NCBI GenBank assembly: GCA_018417955.1
Contig: JACTVC010000041.1
Location: forward strand, 186,001 to 250,000
From: Laccaria trichodermophora
Lineage: Eukaryota > Basidiomycota > Agaricomycetes > Agaricales > Hydnangiaceae
Direction of reading: 5' to 3'
Length of the DNA: 64,000 nucleotides
The notes beneath the pieces are model-generated. The model had not been told where the DNA came from. It ran no database searches and saw nothing but the letters and a program-made list of their open reading frames with translations. Positions 2,332 through 45,941 of this stretch are shown piece after piece (position 1 is the stretch's first letter; every line of letters begins with the position of its first letter). Both the position numbers and the translations under genes were made by a program.

Positions 2332-4620
2332 AACTGAGACTCTTTGTGCTCTAAGGAACATCAGGAAAATGGTTCTGGGCTGTAGTTTGGCCATATTTAC
2401 ATAGTCTCCATAGGCTTGGTAGGTCAACATAGGTTAATCATTACCTCTGTAGACCATGGTAGGTACAAAAGATAATCTGAGCCTACAGTAGACTATCAAA
2501 ATAAATCTCACCTCATTAAAAATCTGGAATGATGAAAACATGATATCACAGTCAATGAGGTATGAGGGAAATTATGATCATAATACCATTATATATGATA
2601 CAAGCTACCCTGGACTACAATTTATTAGACACATCTTCTCACTGTTTGCAGTGGAGATGAACAGTGTTTTAAAAGTTTTGCCAGCACCAGTGGTATGTAT
2701 AGCACAAACAGCTATATATTTCAAAGGCCTGAATAGACTAACTGTAATATCGCATGTGTGGCTGATCTTTTGTGTAGGCCTCTCCGTAAGACTCTGAGTT
2801 CAATTCCCCTAAGATGTAATATTTATTCTCTCCGTTGTGCTCACCTGTGTTGTCAAAGTTATAAAACTAATCACCTCCGAAATTGAAACAGTTCATTGTG
2901 AAAGGTGATGGTAGAGTGAGCACCTCAGCAAGAGATGAAATTACATTTTCGGTAGAATAGGGTTGAAATACAGTACCTATGGCAACCTACTGCCAGCCTA
3001 CATAGACTACTCACTGACCTATGTATTCTATATATCAGGGGGGAACCTATGAAGCTATGGTCCCTACATAGGCTCCATAGACCTACATAGGTCTCAACCA
3101 ATTTCCTGATGAATATTCCTGCTCTCGAGGGCTTGACACATTTCAACTCATTTGACTCTGCTAACAAATTCTACAGGTACGACTAGTTCAGAATTGTTAA
3201 CTAATAGCATTTGTATTCATAGGAATACACCAATGCAGAGTCATAGACTCTAACAAACCTGGAGCTGCTGAGTGAGCAAGGATGAATACATGGTGAAACT
3301 TGGAATAATAACCTGCAAGACAGTCCCAGAAGGCAACATCCCTGCAATACACAAGATGAAAACCTTGCACCAGATCCACCTGACACTGAAGGGTCAGCAA
3401 GAAGGGTTGCCCTGGGGCATAGGGTGTGTAATATCAACTCATTTCATGAAATAAGTATCACCTTCCCCCATTTTTTTTAGATCCCTCTCACTCCTCTTCT
3501 GAATCACATACTATCACCCTGTGCTCCTTCTATGCAAATGGCCATTGGTGCTAATCATCAAATTATCTCACCCTGGTGGCAGCAGGTGCAACCAACTCAA
3601 AGAGATCCGTCGCTCTGCAAAACCAGCACCAACAAGCCCATCTTCAATGCAACCAAGCATTGCAGACCAACCAATGTATTTATCATTTTGTCCCCCAAGA
3701 CTCATGCACTCAATGAATCCATTTTTTTCTTTTTTGTTGAATAGCTACTCCCAATGCCTGCTCTTTGGCTCAGCAACGACAGTGCAAGCATGAAGCACAA
3801 TAGCAACAAAGTGTTAGTGGAGTTGAGAGTCAGCAAAGTAAGTACATTGTAAGTACATGGCTATTATCAAGAAAGGATGGTATCAGCTATTCCGACATAT
3901 TTCCACTTGAGGTATGGCATGACCACCTTTGGTCCCTGAGTGTGGGAACTAAGTCCACCTACAGTAATGTATGTGTAAATACTCAGAAAATAGGAAGAGG
4001 GTGGGTGGGCAACTATCAAGATAGAGTGAGCTATTGTAATAACAACCCTAGAGAAGAAAAGAAATTCGCACCTAGCTGAGGGAGTGAACTCAACCAATCA
4101 TGAGCATTATCAAGAAAGGTCCCATGCAAATGCATGGGTATCAGCTAGTATATAATACTCAACAAATGTGAGAATGGGATCAAACAACCTCTTTCTCCCT
4201 CCCCCATCCAGCAGTGCCAGCTGACCTCTTGACATTGTCCATCATAAACTGGCTAACATCTTCCATTTGGTAAGTGCTTTACTTCAGAGGCATTACTAAT
4301 TGAGTTCAATGTGCCAGACCTGCTCAAACACAGGAAAGTGCTTCCCTGCAGACTGGATGAGGGGAAAGGGGAAATTTTGGTGGGCTATGGCGGGGATGGG
4401 GATGAGGATGAGGATGATATGGAGTATCAGGGGGCTCAGTCTGGGAATGAGGGTTTGGGAAGCAACGATGTGTTCATCCAAGCATCGATATTGTAAGTTG
4501 GTTGATACCATGTAGATAGGTTGTATGTAAACACTCAGTTATAGCCTCAATTTCATCTGTCTATTGAGTTTTTTATACCAGTCCAATCAAAATTCAATGT
4601 GGTGATTTCTATCTGTTGGA
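2332..4620. other. Gene-poor stretch
   Basis: I see no supportable gene. The stretch has CCTATGTAGG-like motifs around 2990-3100. A sequence like ATTATCAAGAAAGG..TATCAGCTA occurs in direct orientation near 3863 and 4105. A tRNA-like B-box (GAGTTCAATTCCC) lies near 2808 and could belong to a short interspersed element, but no A-box at proper spacing is convincing. Open frames are short and uncorrelated. Confidence 0.5.
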
Positions 4621-7622: not shown

Positions 7623-9400
7623 CAGGTAAAGTCTTCAGTGCAATCTGGGCAGACTCTGTCTTGGGTGTAGCAAGATTCTCTCAGGTTGATCATATTTCTG
7701 TAATTGAAGGTTTTGAAAATGCTTTGCAATAGGCTAGAGGTTGAGACATACTTCATAAATTGAATGTGATGCTGCATGTTGCCCTCCAGTTGAGCATCTA
7801 ACTCCTCTCTCTTGAGGGTATTGTAAGGCTCCAAATTGATGTTCAATTCAACAACTTCATGGTCTTGATTATCTTTGCCATCATCATACATGTTGTTCTT
7901 GGAGCCTTGTGCAGCTTGTGCAACAAGGTTTGTGATTTGCAAGTTGCCAAGTTCCTTCTGTCACCTGTTGATATTGTTGGTTGTAATAGTTACTCAAACC
8001 TCTGATGTTGCTCATGCTGCCATTCAGTTTGGTATGCTTCTTGTTCACGCCTAATCAGGTGCTTGATCCTCTGAAGGGTCCAAGCATATGTACTGCCAGC
8101 CATGTCATTCCATGATAGTATCGAAGTGTCATACTAGTAGTGTATCATCGTCAGCTGAGAATATGCACAGAAAAACATTGGTACGCACTACAACTTGTTT
8201 CTAATCTGTGAGTCCTAGAGCAAGGCAGTCTTTGAGGTCGATTGCTTGCTGCAAGAGAATCTTCAGCATTGGCACACACCTCTCTAACTCATTCTGATCA
8301 AGTGGGGTGCCAGCCACCTTCTCCAACCTTCAAAATGTATTAGATAGATGCAAGGACACTGATATACAATCTTACCTGTTGAGGGCTGGCTGATGACCCT
8401 GCCTCATGTTCCACACAGATTCTACTGTTTCACCTAAAATGAGACTGACAAAGTTGGTTCAATGAATATCATGATCATATGTCGTCTCCAGGGTGGTGCT
8501 ATTGGCCTTATGGGCCATTGCCTTGTGTGCTTTATCCTTGCTGGCATGATTGGCAATGACTGTTGCGAAATACCTCCTCATGGCATACAATGTCACACTG
8601 CTTTCACTACCTAATCCTGGGGGGTAAGAAAATGTTAGTGCCAAGATGAATTCAATTTCTTACCACCCAATCCAACTGATATGCCGATGTGCTGCATGAA
8701 TTCCCTGTGATTGTTGTTGTGCATTGGTTTTGTAGGATCAATACTGAGACCCTGCTTCGTTGATTGGACAAAAGAGGTGTCTTCGAGTGCCAGCAAGAAG
8801 ACTTTTGAGGCTGCCATGGTGCTTGAACAATCTGTGCCAGATTCCATGTGCCACAAGGTAGCATCTGATGTCCAAGTCAAGGTGTTCGGCTACCGTTGTT
8901 GAGCACAACATATATACGATGCACAAGTGTGATGTATCATGGTACCCCTTCCACCACTCAATGGTCAACTCAGATGCAAAGCGACCAGGAGAATCTGTGT
9001 TGTGGAAGAATTTTATGTTCTGCTAAACCATTAGAATGCATTGTAGTGGCAGGGCAAATAAGAAACTCACTTTGAACCTTATGTAGCAGTCGTGATAATT
9101 GCATACGGCAAAAGCTGAGGAGGGCTGGATGCCTGTTTTGAGCTCCAAGATGATTGTGATGGTATGTTGAAGGGACTAGATTTGGATTAGCAAAAGGTAC
9201 CTGCAGATAATAAGAAGTCACTTACATTATCATAGCATACAGCATCTATCATAGCTCTAGCAATCAGCAGCTTCACCTCATCCAGACCAAAGTATGACTT
9301 GATTGTCAGTTCAGTGTCCAATTTGAAAGTGTGCTGTGCCTGTTTTACCCACTACAGAGGATCAAATCAATGAAATGGGCATGAATAAAGTATGCACACA
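7607..9400 (-). pseudogene. Decayed multi-exon mobile-element gene, minus strand
   Basis: Reading the minus strand gives several coding-like pieces separated by GT-AG-like introns: FKLDTELTIKSYFGLDE near 9300, SELTIEWWKGYHDTSHLC near 8970, CSSTMAASKVFLLALEDTS near 8800, YAMRRYFATVIANHASKDK near 8560, and RIKHLIRREQEAYQTEWQ near 8060. A divergent copy of the 8150-8960 part lies inverted at 21690-22445. The piece around YAMRRYFAT..TTLETTYDHD is weakly reminiscent of the C-terminal Arg/Tyr region of tyrosine recombinases, but I would not assign it on this alone. Stops and shifts show that it is broken. The giant foldback is inserted at its upstream end. Confidence 0.45.
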
Positions 9401-10799
9401 AGAAATGTTGTGTGAGCCATTGTGGCACTTCAGTCACCCACCTTGAACAAGCTATTAGCCTTGAAACATATAGGTATATATCCAGGCTAATAGGTTCCTT
9501 GGCCATTTATTTTTTTGCCTCTGGAGGAAAATATATTATTGCATTGGGCAAAAATGTTTGACCTTCAATATTGTGACCAGAAATATTTGGGTTGATATAT
9601 TGCATTGAAAAATATCCTAGCCATCTGAAAGTGGTCAGAAATGTTTGAAGCATGTTAGAGTGGTAGGAAATATTTGAAGTGTTTCAGACTGGTCAGAAAT
9701 GTTTTAGCTATGTCACACTACTGAAAAATCTTTTTGTCATGTCACACTGCTAAGAAATGTTTGAGTGATGTCACACTGCTGAAAAATCTTTTGAGCATGT
9801 CACACTGCTCAGAAATGTTTTAGCCATGTCACATAGCCAAAAAATTTCCTGCCAGTGTCACAGAGTATCTGGGGTCCTAGTTTCAAAAAAATAACTTCAA
9901 AAATTTCTGACCATTCAAACTTTTATCTTCTGGATTCAACTTTTCTACAAAATTTATCATAAAGATAATTTTGGTCCTAAACTTGCCATTTAACTTTTAT
10001 ATTGTATTTTTGTTATAGAAACAGCAGATTATATATTGCATGCAACTGTATCTATTGGTATTCAGCTATTTTTTATATAGTTATAGCCTCTAAATTCTGC
10101 TTCATCAGATCATGAAGGTTGTTACTGACTGCTCTTATATTGAGTTTATATTGGTAATTGCCTATCATAGACTAGCCCTACCTACTGAATCATTACTGTT
10201 GTCTATTATTCATGCAAATTACCAGAGGTGAATATTGGCTGATGTGCAAGCAATATTGTTCACTGCGGTAAACATATGTTTCTGAAAACTAGAGAGAGTT
10301 CTGGGGATTGTTACATTTACTATGCTAGCTATATTTTCTCACTCCCATAGAGGTATCTTCCTGAGCACTGGAGAGTTCTGAGGATTGTCAGAGTATGATG
10401 TTTCATGTAAAACTATATGTCATGTATTTGTGTTTGTTGACTATAATGACCTATTGAATTTCCTGCTTGACCACCATCATGACTGCCAGTACTTTACTGT
10501 GCCCCACCTATTTCTGCAGAAATGGCTAGAATCCTGCAGAGTTCTGATGTCTCTATCAAAAGTAGTTGAATTTTCTTTTTTAGATATGCATTTTAGACCT
10601 TGACAACAGTACCCAACAAGAAGTCCTATTTTTTCTCATTTTTACCATATTTTATCAATGATTTTGCTTTAAAATAGTAATATTTCTCATTTGAAAATGC
10701 AAAATGGACTCCAAAATCAGCCCTGCAACATTATGACCACCAGTAATTACCATCTACATTTTCCCCAAGTTACTCTCATTTTATTGTGATTTTCTGGCT

Positions 10800-12090
10800 A
10801 TATTTGCACAAATTACCCTATTTGGAAATATGCACAGGTCATGTCCACTATGCACCCACATTGTCAATAACAGTCAATAGTATGTCTGTCCTTTTCTCTC
10901 TCTTTTCTTTTCTGATTCGTACAGTATATTTGCATCAATTACTATATTAGAAAATGCACATAAACCATGTATATGGTATTTCAATATTCCTGACAATATT
11001 CTATTATTTGCCTCTTTTGGCTGTAATTTTCTGGCTATATTTTCATTATTTACTATATTTTGAAATATGCACAGACCAAGTAAACAGTGCACCAAGATCT
11101 ATTTACATCACATGATTTTTATTTTATTTTTCTAATTATATTCGTATTAATTACTACATTAGAAAATGTGCACAGGCCATGTATATACCCAATATTGTCA
11201 ATGATGGGTCCATTTTCTCATTTTTCTGGCTATATTTGTATCAATTACTATATCAGAAAATGTGCACAAACTATGTTCATAGTATGTCAAGTTTGTCAAT
11301 AATAGTACAGTATTTTTCTGTTTTTCTTCTGATTTTCTAGCTATATTTTCATTAATTACCATACTTGGAAATATGCACAGACCAAGTACACAGTACATCA
11401 AAATTATCACATATTATTTGAATTTATTTATTTATTTTTCTGCGTATATTTATGTTGATTACCATATTGGAAAATATGCACAGACCCTGCACATTGTACC
11501 CCAATATTTTTAACATTACTTTTTTACTTTTATTTTTATTTTATTTTATTTTTCTGACTTTCTGGCTTTATTGAGTTTCCTCTATTATTTTTTCTCTTTC
11601 TCTTCAATTTTTCATGTAGAAATGCAATACTTACTTTATTTTGCCATTGTAGTAGCCACATTATTCATGCTAAAATCTTTGCTGGCTATCACATGATGAA
11701 ACCACATGACATATCACATGATCTATATCACATAAGCAGGCCACATGATACCTCACATGATCATATCACATGATTGATCACATGTCATATCATATGACTG
11801 TATCATGTGACATACAATATGAACAACTATATGATGCATTTATCATGTGCCTATCAGATGAAACCATATCAGCTGGAGTCAGACATCAATTTTCTGGCCA
11901 TATTTTCACTAATTACCACATTTGGAAATGTCCACAGACCAAGTAAACAATACATTAACATTATTAATGACCATTTCCAGCATGTGAATTTCTTTTCTTA
12001 TTTTTTTCTGACTTTTTGGCTGTAATTTCAGTAATTACTATATAGAGAACTGTGCACAGACCATGTAAACATCACCCCATCATCAACACC
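10800..12090 (+). repeat. Inner-arm repeats of the giant foldback, left side
   Basis: Repeated units of about 100-130 bp contain the string TTCTGGCTATATTT, then AATTACTATATT, then AAATATGCACAGACC, separated by T-rich spacers. The reverse complements fill 13340-14230. The arm is therefore a repeat array in its own right, and copies can pair out of register. A CACATGAT-rich patch at 11690-11800 has no clear partner on the right. Confidence 0.75.
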
Positions 12091-13340
12091 CAATTTCTTT
12101 CTGATTTTATTCTAGTAGTATTTCAAATTTGGGTGGTCTAATGGATTATATGTGCATTAAATGTGGAAGCTGTCAATGAAAGTGGTATGGCAAGCTGGAA
12201 TGACAATGGAAAGAAGACCCAGCTGTGATCTTGGTCACAGCTACAGTTCAAAGAGAGGAAGAATGAGGGTTAGAGACTAGATGTGGGTGTATTTTAACAA
12301 GATTCAAGATTGCTCCAGATATTCAAAGCTACCCTGGAAATCCATGAGAGGTTGGATACAGATGCAGGAAGAGATAACAGTGCAGATCTGATAAGACCTG
12401 CCCTGATAGACTGGGTCTTGTGACACCAGAGTCACTGAATAGGCATTCAGTTACACTAAATAAAAGATTACAGCTTGTCAGCAGGTTGGTGGTTTGAACC
12501 AAGCCAGAGGCAAGATTACATTGCCAGTTCATTTACAACTGTAGCAGTAAGTGACAAGTTGCAAGGTGAGATCCCCTGGAGTCACCTATATCATGATGAC
12601 TACATGTTGGAAGGTCCTGGTTGATGTTATAGAGTAGGGGAGGCTGTAAGGCTGTATTAGGTATACAGCTGTCTACACTACCACATATATGGACCAGTAG
12701 ATGAAGGAGTAATCTTTCATTTATCCAACCTTTTGGTGTAGAATTTCCAGAGAAGGAGTGGGGATTGTGCAGTGGAATTCTGAAGCATGAATGATCTCCA
12801 CTAGATACTAGCAGAATGTCTCTTGAATCAAGATCTGACTTATATTGTAGCCAATCACAGCTTGGTCTTAACACCATTATCATTTTGGCTCACTATACAA
12901 CATTCATCAACAGCTCCCCATGTATAACACATAGATAATGTGTTACACATCTGCTGGGGGGTGAGGATCATTGAATAAAGCACTTTATATGCTCATAGTG
13001 ATCATCTAGTTACTGTCATTTGTGGATAGTATAGACATATTGCATGTAGATATGGACATTGTAATTTGTGGGTATGGTATAGGGAAAGCATAAGATTTGT
13101 AGGCACCCTACTACTATTACAAGGACATAACAATGACCCAATATGCACTCACTACCAACATGCAATACACCACCACCCTGTAGGAAATTCAGTATATTGG
13201 TTCTTGATATTATATAAAACCATTGTAAATGGTGCAGAGGATTCCACAAAGTAGAGGAGTAAGGGCTCTTATTTGGGTATTGTCTTTGGCATGGGGACAG
13301 AGCAGCAAAACATAAGAGCAAGGCAATAGACCATTACTAA
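12090..13340. other. Unpaired central spacer of the giant foldback
   Basis: No arm similarity and no gene I can support. One segment near 12490 (GGTGGTTTGAACCAAGCC) resembles a tRNA B-box but lacks a matching A-box. Open frames are short on both strands and none shows a domain. Confidence 0.5.
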
Positions 13341-14230
13341 TGGCCTGTGCACATTTCCCATTATAGAAAATCAGACAAAAAGAGGGGAAAATAGATATAT
13401 GGTCAATATGGTAATTAATACAAATACAGCCAGAAAATTAAAGAGAAATCCAATAATGCTAGAAAATTAGAAAATTAAAATTAAAATAATAAAATATTGT
13501 TGAAAATATTGGGGTACAATATACAGGGTCTGTGCATATTTTCCAATATGGTAATCAATATAAATATAGGCAGAAAAATAATAAAAACTTCAAATGATAT
13601 GTGATAATTTTGATGTACTGTTTACTTGGTTTGTGCACATTTCCAAATTTGGTAATTAATGACAATATGGCCAGAAAATTAGAAGAAAAACAGAAACATA
13701 ATGTACTATTATTGACAATATTGACATGCTATGAATATAGTTTGTGCACATTTTTTGACATAGTAATTGATACAAATATAGCCAGAAAAATAAGAAAATG
13801 GACTATTGTTGACAATATTGGTTATGTACATGGCCTGTGCACATTTGCTAATATAGTAATTAATACAAATGTAATTAGAAAAATCAGAAAAATCATGTGA
13901 TGTAAATAGGTCTTGGTGTACTGTTTACCTGGTCTGTGCATATTTCCAAATATAGTCTATAATGGAAATATAGCCATAAATATACAGGAAAAAGAGAAAA
14001 ATAATAGACTATTGTCAGGAATATTGAGGTACCATATACATGGTTTGTATGCATTTTATAATATAGCAATTAATATGAATATAGTGTGAGAATCAGAAAA
14101 AAAAAAGCAGCAAAAAAGCACAGACATACTATTAACTGTTATTGACAATGTTGGTGCATGGTGGACATGATCTGTGCATATTTCCAAATAAGGTAATTTG
14201 TGCACAAATATGGCTAGAAAATCATAATAA
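13340..14230 (-). repeat. Inner-arm repeats of the giant foldback, right side
   Basis: This is the reverse-complement array of the left inner arm, with units such as GGTCTGTGCATATTTCC, AATATAGTAATTAATA and AATATAGCCAGAAAA. It pairs with 10800-12090. Confidence 0.75.
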
Positions 14231-16218
14231 AATGAGAGTAACATTGGAGAAAATGTAGATGGTAATTACTGGTGGTCATAATGTTGCAGGGCTGATTTCG
14301 GAGTCCATTTTGCATTTTCAAATGAGAAATATTACTATTTTAAATGAAAATCATTTATAAAATATGGTAAAAATGAGAAAAAATAGGACTTCTTGTTGGG
14401 TACTGTTGTCAAGGTCTAAAATCCATGTCTAAAAAAGAAAATTCAAATATTTCTAATAGAGAGATCAGAATTCTGGAGGATTCAAGCCATTTCTGCAGAT
14501 ATCGGTGGGGCACAGTAAAGTACCAGGAGAAGAAATTCAATATGTCATTATAGCCAACAAACATGAATACATTACATCATATACATTTACATGAAACATC
14601 AGACTCTGACAATCCTCAGAACCCTCTCCAGTGCTCAGGAACATATCTCTATGGGAGTGAGAAATATAGCTAGCATGGTAAATGTAACAATGCCCAGAAC
14701 TCTCTCTAGTTTTCAGAAACATAGGTCCACTGCAGTGAAGAATATGTGTAGTATGTCAGTCCAGTGAGCAACTTCCTACATACACATCTTACTCTTTCCA
14801 CTCCCCAACATTGTGCAACTATCAGTCTGTAACCATATGCTTAGTCAAATTCTGCTTACATCATCCATTTTGTACATTACACCTCATGTAGTCCATGAGG
14901 GAATCTATCCCGTCAACCACACTCTTGCTCATGTTGCTCAACTTGAAGCCCTACTAACAGCTGTAACTTGAACACTAGGCAATATGTGTGAGGAGCCTTC
15001 GTGACTTGCATGATCATAGCACTCTCCAATGGGACTGTCCATGAAGATCAGAGCATGGGTACTATGAACTGTCACATTCCATGGCTCCTAGCTATTGATT
15101 GATTGGCTGGAACAACCTATTCCTTGGGTCACAACAACTTTGGTTGCATTGTCCGTTAGACATTCCAACAGCTGTTCCACTACTCTAGGGACACTTACAT
15201 TCAGTAGTGTACCACAATATAGCTTGCACATCAGCCAATATTTATCTCTGCATGAATAATAGACAACAGTAATGATTCAGTAGGTAGGGCTAGTCTATTA
15301 TAGGCAATTACCAATATAAACTCAATATAAGAGCAGTCAGTAAAAACCTTCATTATCTGATGAAGCAGAATTTAGAGGCTATAACCATATAAAAAATAGC
15401 TGAATGCCAATAGATACAGTTGCATGCAATATATAATCTGCTGTTTCTATAACAAAAATACAATATAAAAGTTAAAGGGCAAGTATAGGACCAAAATTAT
15501 CTTTATGATAAATTTTGTAGAAAAGTTGAATCCAGAAGATAAAAGTTTGAATGGTCAGAAATTTTTGAAGTTATTTTTTTGAAACTAGGACCCCAGATAC
15601 TCCATGACACTGGCAGGAAATTTTTTGGCTATGTGACATGGCTAAAACATTTCTGAGCAGTATGACGTGCTCAAAAGATTTTTCAGCAGTGTGACATGAC
15701 AAAAAGATTTTTCAGCAGTGTGACATAGCTAAAACATTTCCGACCAGTCTGAAACACTTCAAATATTTCCTACCACTCTAACATGCTTCAAACATTTCTG
15801 ACCACTTTCAGATGGCTAGGATATTTTTCAATGCAATATATCAACCCAAATATTTCTGGTCACAATATTGAAGGTCAAACATTTTTGCCCAATGCAATAA
15901 TATATTTTCCTCCAGAGGCAAAAAAATAAATGGCCAAGGAACCTATTAGCCTGGATATATACCTATATGTTTCAAGGCTAATAGCTTGTTCAAGGTGGGT
16001 GACTGAAGTGATTGTGGTGGCTCTCTCAGTGCCTGACAAGTCCGTAAATTCAATCATCTTGTAAGAAATTGATCAGTACACACATGGAATGAAACAAGCT
16101 TGTTATACCAGGAAAAGGCAATCCCATCTGAGTCTGACCATGCTGCTATAAGTCATTAACTTGCTCTTTTTGCCTTTTGAACATGTGACATGATGAAAAA
16201 AAAAAAACGACTGCCAAC

Positions 16219-44243: not shown

Positions 44244-45941
44244 TTAATTGGTAGTCGCCGTTGTGTAAGCAGTAGTGGCGAATCCAACTCGCTTGTTGGT
44301 CGTGTCAAAGACAGAGTAGAACCGCTCAAGGAATGCGTAACCGTTGATGAAATCGAGTCCTTGGCCGCTTTGGGATCCAAGATTGGCGACAATGAGGTAA
44401 ATGTTGCCAGCCGTGCCGCCAATAAGCGTGTTGAGAGAACGGGGAAACAGCTGAGCATTAGCTGTAAGAGTATACGTGACCTGTTTCATTTTCCTGAGCT
44501 ATGAATTGTGCTACGAGTTGGGGAAAACCTACGCCGCCCGTGGTAAAATATAGGTTCTGCAGGTTTGCAAACTGGGCGGTGGTGATGCGGAGGAGACCAG
44601 TGTTTGAGTCAGGAACGGCACCGGTGGCTGACATGTATCTGCTGAAAGCGTCACTGGCGATCATGATCAGGGTAGTTCCTGTATTGAAACCCATGAGGAC
44701 GTGCTGTCAAAGCTAGAAAATAAAAGAGGACGAACCGGTGTCGACGATACCGGCCGTTGTTGAAAGAATGTTCGTCGAAGATCCATAACGAATAGACTGA
44801 TTGATTCCCCAGTAATTGCTAGCGGGTGAGGTCGACGTTACCGGTGTGTAGCTAATCGTGCCTGTGTACTTGGTGCTATCGGTTCCACCTAAACGGCGTT
44901 GTGAGCGTGAGGCCAGTAATTGTGTAAGAATGAAGGTACCATAGGTAAGCTCCCCGTTCTGAACCGATTGTTGAGTAGTTGGCGCAAAATAGATACCAAC
45001 CTGGTTGGCAGGGATGAGGCCTTGGCTGAACAAATTGTCTGTCACTGTCGGGACTGTTGCGCTTGTCGCGGGAAACAAAGTGTCTATATGCGCGTCAGAG
45101 TGAGGACGTGGGGAGGAAGAATTTGTCTTGAGATTACTTTCTGTCAGGTCGACTGGGCCGATGCTGCGTTGCATAAATAAATAGGAACGCAACCAATAAA
45201 ATAATCCTCTTACCCGAGAATGCCATCTACACCTTTGAACCCTTGAGACTAAAGGGCGCTATCAGAACAAAGCATTTTGGATGGCTTGAGACTTACCGTG
45301 ATTGCAGCACCGATCGATTGAGACTTGATAACTGCGTTTGGAGAAATTGTGAGGGAGTCGGTCACCTCAAGCCCTTGGAAAGATCCTGATCCATAGGTAA
45401 CCGTCTGCATTTTGTTCAGTCAGCTCCGAGACGGCGTTGATACTAGTGATCGCAACTCACAACTAAATTTAAGGGAGGTCGGATGTTTTGTATGCTGATC
45501 TGGTATCGTTTGTCGGCGCCGACCCAGGTATTGGAACTATTTGAATACCGTGAATGAGATGCCACGTGTGATAGGAAGCACTAACCTTCCTGTGTCAATG
45601 AGAAGCGAATCTAAACACGGCGGGTAGCCCATTAGAAACCATTGATTACAACAAGATATATGCGCACAAGTTGTAGGCGGGTTGCCGACGCCAACCGACG
45701 CGGTGTAAGTGACAGCTTGATTCGTGATCTGCGTGTTGACAGGAACGCCCTTGGATGCGCGATTCTTCAACTGCTGCGCGCGAGCTTGATCATGAGCGAC
45801 GAGGTTGTGGGCGTTGGTGAAGTTGTGCTGTCTAAATAGCGCAAGCTTTATTGGAGATTGATTAATGACGGCGGGATTGGCGACGACGCCCAACGCGAAT
45901 AAAAGGAGCGTGGAAAGTAAAGAACGGCGGGGTATAGTCAT
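44244..45941 (-). CDS. Secreted aspartic protease, peptidase A1 (polyporopepsin-like)
   Basis: An acid endopeptidase expected to be secreted as a zymogen. The N-terminus MTIPRRSLLSTLLLFALGVV is a signal peptide, followed by a propeptide of about 70 residues. Both catalytic motifs are intact once introns are removed: DTGSSNTWVGA, split by an intron at 45537-45585, and DTGTTLI, split by one at 44679-44735. Other introns include 45611-45667 and 44481-44532. The protein also has TVTYGSGSF (flap tyrosine), SIGAA, VDGILGIGPVDLT, and the C-terminal FINGYAFLERFYSVFDTTNKRVGFA typical of pepsins. The start is the ATG at 45941; longer versions would need TTG. Such proteases degrade extracellular protein for nutrition. 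Confidence 0.95.

What the first reader, a model, noticed from the sequence alone, without database searches (positions are those of the whole stretch)
9419..16017. Giant 6.6 kb foldback transposon with readable ends and 7 bp duplication
Inverted arms of over 2 kb end in perfect 20 bp termini (CACTTCAGTCACCCACCTTG) and are bracketed by ATTGTGG. Such long arms, a 7 bp duplication and no ORF do not fit hAT (8), MULE (9-11) or CACTA (2-3). It may represent an undescribed foldback family.
Basis: partly seen in the sequence, partly recalled or inferred. Interest (0 to 1): 0.85.

Follow-up and report, generated by a model that had tools for sequence, protein, structure and literature searches.

The report
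Giant palindromic KDZ transposon family
The 6.6-kb palindrome is a real DNA transposon without its own transposase; it shares its ends with KDZ transposase-carrying elements in the same (apparently fungal) genome, and related copies show that one giant arm gets copied over the other.

Summary
In detail: 9426-16010 is a 6,585-bp foldback element bracketed by ATTGTGG. The exact 20-bp terminus occurs 152 times in the 59.0-Mb assembly (reversed control 0). Of 43 end-pairings tested, 30 have an exact target duplication: 14 of 7 bp, 16 of 8 bp, so 7 bp is not diagnostic. Its arms are imperfect (87-94 %) and one carries a 470-bp LTR-like insertion.

It is best read as a non-autonomous KDZ (Kyakuja-Dileera-Zisupton) element. 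Two intervals bounded by the same termini and 8-bp duplications carry a KDZ transposase gene. In that lineage the gene ends 1.40-1.44 kb from an exact terminus at 7 of 11 scored loci (one after subtracting a nested copy), against 0 of 8 chosen control KDZ loci. A 29-bp subterminal repeat is shared.

New here: arms evolve in concert. In six close copies, 18 of 19 element-private variants are in both arms. In two copies the LTR-like insertion is in both arms, 881 bp from each end, while inner arms remain unequal: a conversion tract. Galileo (P superfamily) is the closest analogue; no KDZ foldback was among the paper rows listed. New variant of a known kind.

The parts
9419..9425 (.). left target-site duplication ATTGTGG
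16011..16017 (.). right target-site duplication ATTGTGG
9426..16010 (.). whole non-autonomous KDZ-type foldback element, 6,585 bp
   Evidence: same 33-bp end at KDZ-carrying intervals with target duplications
9426..9445 (+). terminal 20 bp CACTTCAGTCACCCACCTTG, left
15991..16010 (-). terminal 20 bp, right (inverted)
9426..11591 (+). left arm
   Evidence: inverted-repeat alignments
13434..16010 (-). right arm (includes the 470-bp insertion)
9630..9833 (+). 29-bp-period subterminal tandem array, left; unit resembles that of KDZ copy L045:346-447; candidate transposase-binding sites (inferred)
15632..15804 (-). 29-bp-period subterminal tandem array, right
10781..12071 (+). diverged repeat units spaced mostly about 100-125 bp (from inner left arm into the loop)
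   Evidence: families D1 and D2
13340..14206 (-). matching diverged repeat units (from the loop edge into the inner right arm)
   Evidence: families D4, D5, D7, D8
11592..13433 (.). loop between the arms, no ORF; piece 12120-13320 also found in other copies
14747..15216 (+). 470-bp LTR-like insertion (TGT...ACA, flanked by ATATG/ATATA) in the right arm only; present in both arms of two other copies
   Evidence: ends read

Best explanation
A non-autonomous foldback transposon of the KDZ superfamily. Shown: it has the termini, the subterminal 29-bp repeats and the 7/8-bp target duplications of KDZ-transposase-carrying intervals in the same genome. Shown on related copies: private mutations, and even a 470-bp insertion, appear mirrored in both arms. 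Inferred: the KDZ transposase, made in trans by those elements, binds the subterminal arrays, excises the element and inserts it with a 7- or 8-bp stagger. Inferred: the two arms pair with each other as a hairpin, or serve as mutual templates during repair of excision or replication breaks, and one overwrites the other by gene conversion. That would keep kilobase palindromes near-perfect until heterology freezes them, as in the subfamily to which the window copy belongs.
For: KDZ link. C67:1435137-1450884 (15,748 bp) has the same 33-bp end at both sides, the 8-bp duplication TAGTGGTG and a KDZ domain at 1437136-1437903. C39:72107-109322 has the duplication CATATCCC and a KDZ match at 106328-107887. 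Of 11 loci at least 88 % identical to the transposase ORF (a lower bound; 83 of 238 candidates scored), 7 have an exact terminus 1,404-1,436 bp beyond the match (one after subtracting a nested copy), 1 has it 1,508 bp from a truncated match, 1 at 2,171 bp, 2 have none. Of 8 control KDZ loci at 71-74 % identity on contigs fully listed, 0 have it. The 29-bp unit is shared; the outer 440-470 bp align at 76.5-80.3 % with two KDZ copies. A CxC1 cluster lies upstream of KDZ in L045. None of 89 hAT dimer matches lies in a copy with an exact duplication (checked by eye).
Concerted arms. In six close copies 23 of 25 ungapped variable columns agree between both arms of every copy (500 re-pairings reach at most 2); element-private variants are in both arms 18 times and in one arm once. 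L015 vs L030: 26 substitutions and 4 indels mirrored, 0 one-sided. In the inner-arm tree the six palindromic copies with both arms entered pair left with right, while the window's subfamily groups by side. The LTR-like insertion lies 881 bp from both ends of C45:134795-143350 and C67:106226-113411; its two C45 copies are identical over 441 bp although 3.4-5.0 % from those of W, L033, L035 and L009. The inner arms of these two elements differ (94 vs 86 % and 94 vs 89 % to the window's left arm).
Against: 13 of 43 pairings lack an exact duplication; some are probably nested mispairings or rearrangements. No listed hit of the inner-arm query falls in the C67 or C39 KDZ intervals (only 40 of 279 candidates were scored), so the origin of the inner arms is open. 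No transposition was observed. Homogenisation is not universal: L033 and L035 have unequal arms and different 7-bp duplications; L017/L018 show 0 mirrored and 6 one-arm substitutions, L029/L036 39 and L031/L036 37 one-arm substitutions.
Confidence: 0.86

Rival explanations
1. The palindrome is re-made from a single end at or near transposition (snap-back synthesis or template switching), rather than maintained by gene conversion between two existing arms.
For: Whole arms of 2-3 kb identical to 99.97-100 % in several copies (L015, L016, L021, L029, L030); both arms of symmetric L013 resemble one side of the asymmetric subfamily.
Against: Two copies have the insertion mirrored in the outer arms but unequal inner arms, a tract and not a whole new arm; copies with unequal arms have their own exact duplications.
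Confidence: 0.15
2. The element is mobilised by an unrelated transposase (P/Galileo-like or hAT); the KDZ gene is only a passenger that acquired the same ends.
For: Galileo has the same architecture and 7/8-bp duplications (PMC4168063 passages); hAT dimer domains exist in the genome.
Against: KDZ gene at near-fixed spacing from the terminus at 7 of 11 scored loci; 0 of 89 hAT dimer matches inside copies with exact duplications; no P-type RNase-H match (but the control was silent, so weak).
Confidence: 0.05
3. Assembly or polishing artefact (false palindromes from fold-back reads).
For: False palindromes from missed adapters are a known sequencing artefact (recalled); no reads were available.
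Against: Loops, flanks and target duplications are intact, copies sit at many sites, and 87-94 % arms coexist with 100 % arms.
Confidence: 0.02

Closest known systems
KDZ1-KDZ3 of Cryptococcus neoformans (PMC12810828, passages seen)
   Same: CxC1+KDZ transposase, terminal inverted repeats, 8-bp duplications (4-8 bp for KDZ2 and KDZ3)
   Different: TIRs of 139-241 bp, elements of about 9-11 kb with a transposase gene; no kilobase palindromic derivatives in the passages seen
TET-carrying Kyakuja families of Agaricomycetes (PMC12730594, passages seen)
   Same: KDZ superfamily, 5'-CA..TG-3' termini, 7-bp duplications
   Different: described without TIRs; here giant TIRs, 7- or 8-bp duplications, and none of 76 Tet_JBP matches inside the C67 or C39 KDZ intervals
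Galileo (P superfamily, Drosophila; PMC3573991 and PMC4168063, passages seen)
   Same: foldback arms up to 4.7 kb with tandem repeats, 7- or 8-bp duplications, 98-100 % identity of the two TIRs within a copy, TE insertions that become part of both TIRs, conversion proposed
   Different: unrelated transposase superfamily; here conversion is tested with mirrored private variants and a tract boundary
Tetris (PMC4079207, passages seen) and Tm1 (PMC3169594, search listing only), foldbacks assigned to Mutator
   Same: long repetitive arms, variable loop without ORF (Tetris)
   Different: 8-10 bp duplications for Tetris; no KDZ affiliation stated

Membership tests
KDZ superfamily | KDZ transposase encoded by elements with the same ends and target duplications | tested here: met
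   C67:1435137-1450884 and C39:72107-109322
KDZ superfamily | the window copy itself encodes the transposase | tested here: not met
   no frame of 120 or more codons: non-autonomous
KDZ superfamily | 7- to 8-bp target duplication | tested here: met
   14 of 7 bp and 16 of 8 bp among 43 pairings, 13 without
KDZ superfamily | 5'-CA..TG-3' termini (stated for Kyakuja) | tested here: met
   CACTTC...GAAGTG
KDZ superfamily | CxC cysteine cluster upstream of KDZ | tested here: met
   CxC1 in one copy, L045; not examined in the C67 and C39 copies
KDZ superfamily | mobilised by KDZ transposase | not testable with these tools
   needs a transposition assay
Kyakuja lineage | no TIRs, 7-bp duplications | tested here: not met
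   against PMC12730594; transposase phylogeny not tested
Zisupton or Dileera lineage | 8-bp duplications | tested here: inconclusive
   8 bp in 16 and 7 bp in 14 pairings; transposase phylogeny not tested
foldback elements | very long inverted arms with internal tandem repeats around a loop | tested here: met
Galileo / P superfamily | P-type transposase in copies with these ends | tested here: inconclusive
   PF21787: 0 matches in the genome, but the control was silent too
hAT | 8-bp duplication and hAT transposase within bounded copies | tested here: not met
   7 bp in 14 pairings; 0 of 89 hAT dimer matches inside
MULE | 9-11 bp duplication | tested here: not met
   no exact match longer than 8 bp in 43 pairings
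CACTA/EnSpm | 2-3 bp duplication | tested here: not met
   7 or 8 bp in 30 of 43 pairings

The most novel reading that the evidence does not exclude
A self-maintaining palindromic lineage of KDZ transposons in which arm-to-arm gene conversion, probably fed by breaks left by the KDZ transposase itself, repeatedly rebuilds perfect 2-3 kb arms and spreads any insertion into both arms. Foldback architecture would then arise convergently in unrelated superfamilies (P, Mutator, KDZ) as a by-product of break repair in long TIRs, with frozen asymmetric lineages, like the window's, as escapees.
Probability: 0.4. Interest if true: 0.7.

Novelty: new variant of a known kind. Interest (0 to 1): 0.52.

Why it matters
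It places a giant foldback family in the KDZ superfamily, shows 7- and 8-bp duplications in one family, which weakens duplication length as a lineage marker within KDZ, and supplies natural conversion markers (a 470-bp insertion in one or both arms, mirrored private variants). With these, the idea that foldback arms are kept alike by conversion becomes directly testable. It also suggests how kilobase palindromes can persist and multiply in a genome.

Tried and rejected
Empty site: the joined window flanks match only their own two halves, so no unoccupied copy was found in this assembly. Arm extension by recruitment of loop DNA: L031, L036 and L014 against longer-armed relatives looked suggestive, but internal deletions explain them equally; not claimed. 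L013 as a converted copy: both arms are alike and nearer to one side of the asymmetric subfamily, but it could predate the insertion; not counted as proof. C12b was first read as one KDZ-bearing element; it has an internal terminus and no duplication, so it served only as the source of the ORF. C56:786017/801456 was not counted as a bounded KDZ copy for want of a duplication. Control KDZ loci: besides the 8 used, those at C39:1122 (contig edge), C76 (two), C67 (two) and C77 (contigs not fully listed) and the partial C27:475720 were left out before the count. Rfam: no match. The P-superfamily search was silent in the control too. The organism was not identified: the closest named KDZ relatives by identity are Laccaria amethystina 72 % and L. 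bicolor 67 %, and a window ORF hit four unnamed proteins. The KDZ sub-lineage was not resolved.
Full report
The observation. The window is G000:C36:186001-250000 of a 59.0-Mb, 77-contig assembly. The element is at 9426-16010 with ATTGTGG on both sides. Its arms align as 834 bp at 93.6 % and about 1,340 bp at 87.3 %; between these blocks the right arm alone has 470 bp (14747-15216) starting TGT and ending ACA, flanked by ATATG and ATATA. No frame reaches 120 codons and Rfam has no match.

A family, not a one-off. The exact 20-bp terminus occurs 75 times forward and 77 times reverse; the reversed pattern never. I tested 43 end-pairings, which use 85 of the 152 exact ends (one left end, C56:786017, was tried with two right ends): 30 have exact duplications, 14 of 7 bp and 16 of 8 bp, and 13 have none. 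Of 1,804 non-partner pairings none shares 7 or more bases and one shares 6. Both lengths occur among close relatives: L009 has 8 while L033, L035 and the window copy have 7; L020 and L025 have 8 while L015, L021 and L030 have 7. Sizes in the first 32 copies run from 887 bp to 11.3 kb.

The autonomous partner. KDZ transposase domains (PF18758) give 182 matches in the genome, a lower bound since 150 of 355 candidates were scored. One lineage goes with these ends. C67:1435137-1450884 (15,748 bp) carries the 33-bp window-type end on both sides, the duplication TAGTGGTG and a KDZ gene. C39:72107-109322 has the duplication CATATCCC, a 520-residue open KDZ frame near its right end, and two intervals with the same termini nested inside (84006-96965 and 99384-103303), each with its own 8-bp duplication. 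Eleven scored loci are at least 88 % identical to the query ORF (83 of 238 candidates scored). The distance from the match to an exact terminus is 1,404 (C1), 1,435 (C39), 1,406 (C56), 1,432 (C67), 1,433 (C77), 1,409 (C4) and 1,436 bp (C11:661856, after subtracting nested L021 and its duplication); it is 1,508 bp at C11:521892, whose match stops at residue 459, and 2,171 bp at C12; C34:2444753 and the C17:238543 fragment have none. Of eight control KDZ loci at 71-74 % identity on contigs fully listed (C1, C4, C12, C17, C18, C23, C27, C34), none has an exact terminus there. A CxC1 cysteine cluster precedes the KDZ domain in L045, the C1 copy, whose far end was not seen. The outer part of the window element aligns at 76.5-80.3 % with the left ends of KDZ copies L045 and L038, including a 29-bp tandem unit: TGGCCAGAAATGTTTGAGGCGTGTCAGAC in L045 and AGTGGTCAGAAATGTTTGAAGCATGTCAG in the window. 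None of 76 Tet_JBP matches lies in the C67 or C39 intervals. hAT dimer matches exist, but by eye none of the 89 lies in a copy with an exact duplication.

Arms evolve in concert. In 18 of 31 copies the first 1,400 bases of the two arms are at least 99.9 % identical over ungapped positions. In some the nearest arm of any other copy is clearly further away (L013 100 % against 95.3 %, L016 100 % against 92.5 %); in others, such as L017/L018, another copy is just as close. In six close copies chosen (L014, L015, L020, L025, L030, L032), 23 of 25 ungapped variable columns agree between both arms of every copy, whereas 500 re-pairings reach at most 2; private variants lie in both arms 18 times and in one arm once. 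L015 against L030 gives 26 mirrored substitutions, 4 mirrored indels and nothing one-sided. Against that, L017/L018 show 0 mirrored and 6 one-arm substitutions, and L029/L036 and L031/L036 show 39 and 37 one-arm substitutions, so some copies are decaying. In a tree of inner arms (26 arm sequences), the six palindromic copies with both arms entered pair left with right at zero distance, while the window's subfamily (W, L009, L033, L035) groups by side with support 1.0; several deeper nodes are weak. L033 and L035 have the same length, match each other fully over the arms compared and sit at different sites with different 7-bp duplications, so unequal arms can apparently be moved unchanged.

A conversion tract with a marker. 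The 470-bp LTR-like segment has 26 matches. By distance from known ends it is in one arm of W, L033, L035, L009, L024, C4x (split by an insertion) and C12:4615051. In C45:134795-143350 and C67:106226-113411 it lies in both arms, 881 bp from each end. The two C45 copies are identical over 441 bp, while 3.4-5.0 % from those of W, L033, L035 and L009 (7.5 % from L024, about 9 % from the 283 bp aligned in C4x). Farther in, the arms of these two elements are still unequal: 94 and 86 % in C45, 94 and 89 % in C67, to the window's left arm. Independent insertion at mirror points is not credible; copying of an outer tract from one arm to the other is. Two direct-oriented 71 % matches 11 kb apart on C4 (740758 and 751938) would fit the LTR pair of a distant relative (inference).

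Mechanism. Shown: shared ends, subterminal repeats, target duplications, gene-terminus spacing, mirrored variants and a tract. Inferred: mobilisation in trans by KDZ transposase, its binding to the 29-bp arrays (for Galileo, the title and abstract opening of PMC3688188, seen in the listing, report multiple transposase-binding sites in long TIRs), and conversion during repair of breaks.

Comparison. Cryptococcus KDZ1-3 have TIRs of 139-241 bp and duplications of 8, or 4-8, bp (PMC12810828, passages). Kyakuja is described with 7-bp duplications and no TIRs, Zisupton and Dileera with 8 bp (PMC12730594, passages). Galileo shows the same architecture in the P superfamily, with TIRs of 98-100 % identity within a copy, proposed conversion and insertions that become part of both TIRs (PMC3573991 and PMC4168063, passages). 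Three further searches listed no paper whose title or abstract opening describes a KDZ foldback: 15 of 256 papers shown, none found, 15 of 72 shown. The passages seen in the L. bicolor transposon survey (PMC3411680) do not use the word foldback. Most subscription papers are not held, and the founding KDZ and Zisupton papers were not read.

Limits. The inner-arm and loop searches scored 40 of 279 and 40 of 119 candidates, so their copy counts are lower bounds.

Noticed in passing
C1:873414-876615 and genome-wide: 76 Tet_JBP matches in the genome, one of them about 2.5 kb from a KDZ match, consistent with TET-carrying KDZ elements of other lineages.
   Followed up: no
L011, L022, L027, L034: Foldback copies with higher GC (0.43-0.45) and repetitive minisatellite-like frames in the loop; similar-looking frames occur in KDZ copy L045 around 8044-8980 (not aligned).
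   Followed up: no
C17:567980-569260 (L026): An 887-bp miniature copy with the same ends and an exact 8-bp duplication.
   Followed up: no
L024 element, 3702-4583 in element coordinates, minus strand: Frame with a sub-threshold DDE_3 match (Tc1/mariner-like, by recall) inside a copy of this family.
   Followed up: no
C39:17-109 kb, C45:84-143 kb, C4:865-902 kb, C67:88-126 kb: Termini are clustered, and some copies are nested in others.
   Followed up: no
window 44713-45192: Aspartyl protease domain fragment (Pfam Asp, E 5.4e-9) on the minus strand.
   Followed up: no
C12:3092642-3113998: A 21-kb interval between two exact ends with equal inner-arm scores (1104 and 1104 bits), probably a palindromic copy with a large loop or nested insert.
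   Followed up: no
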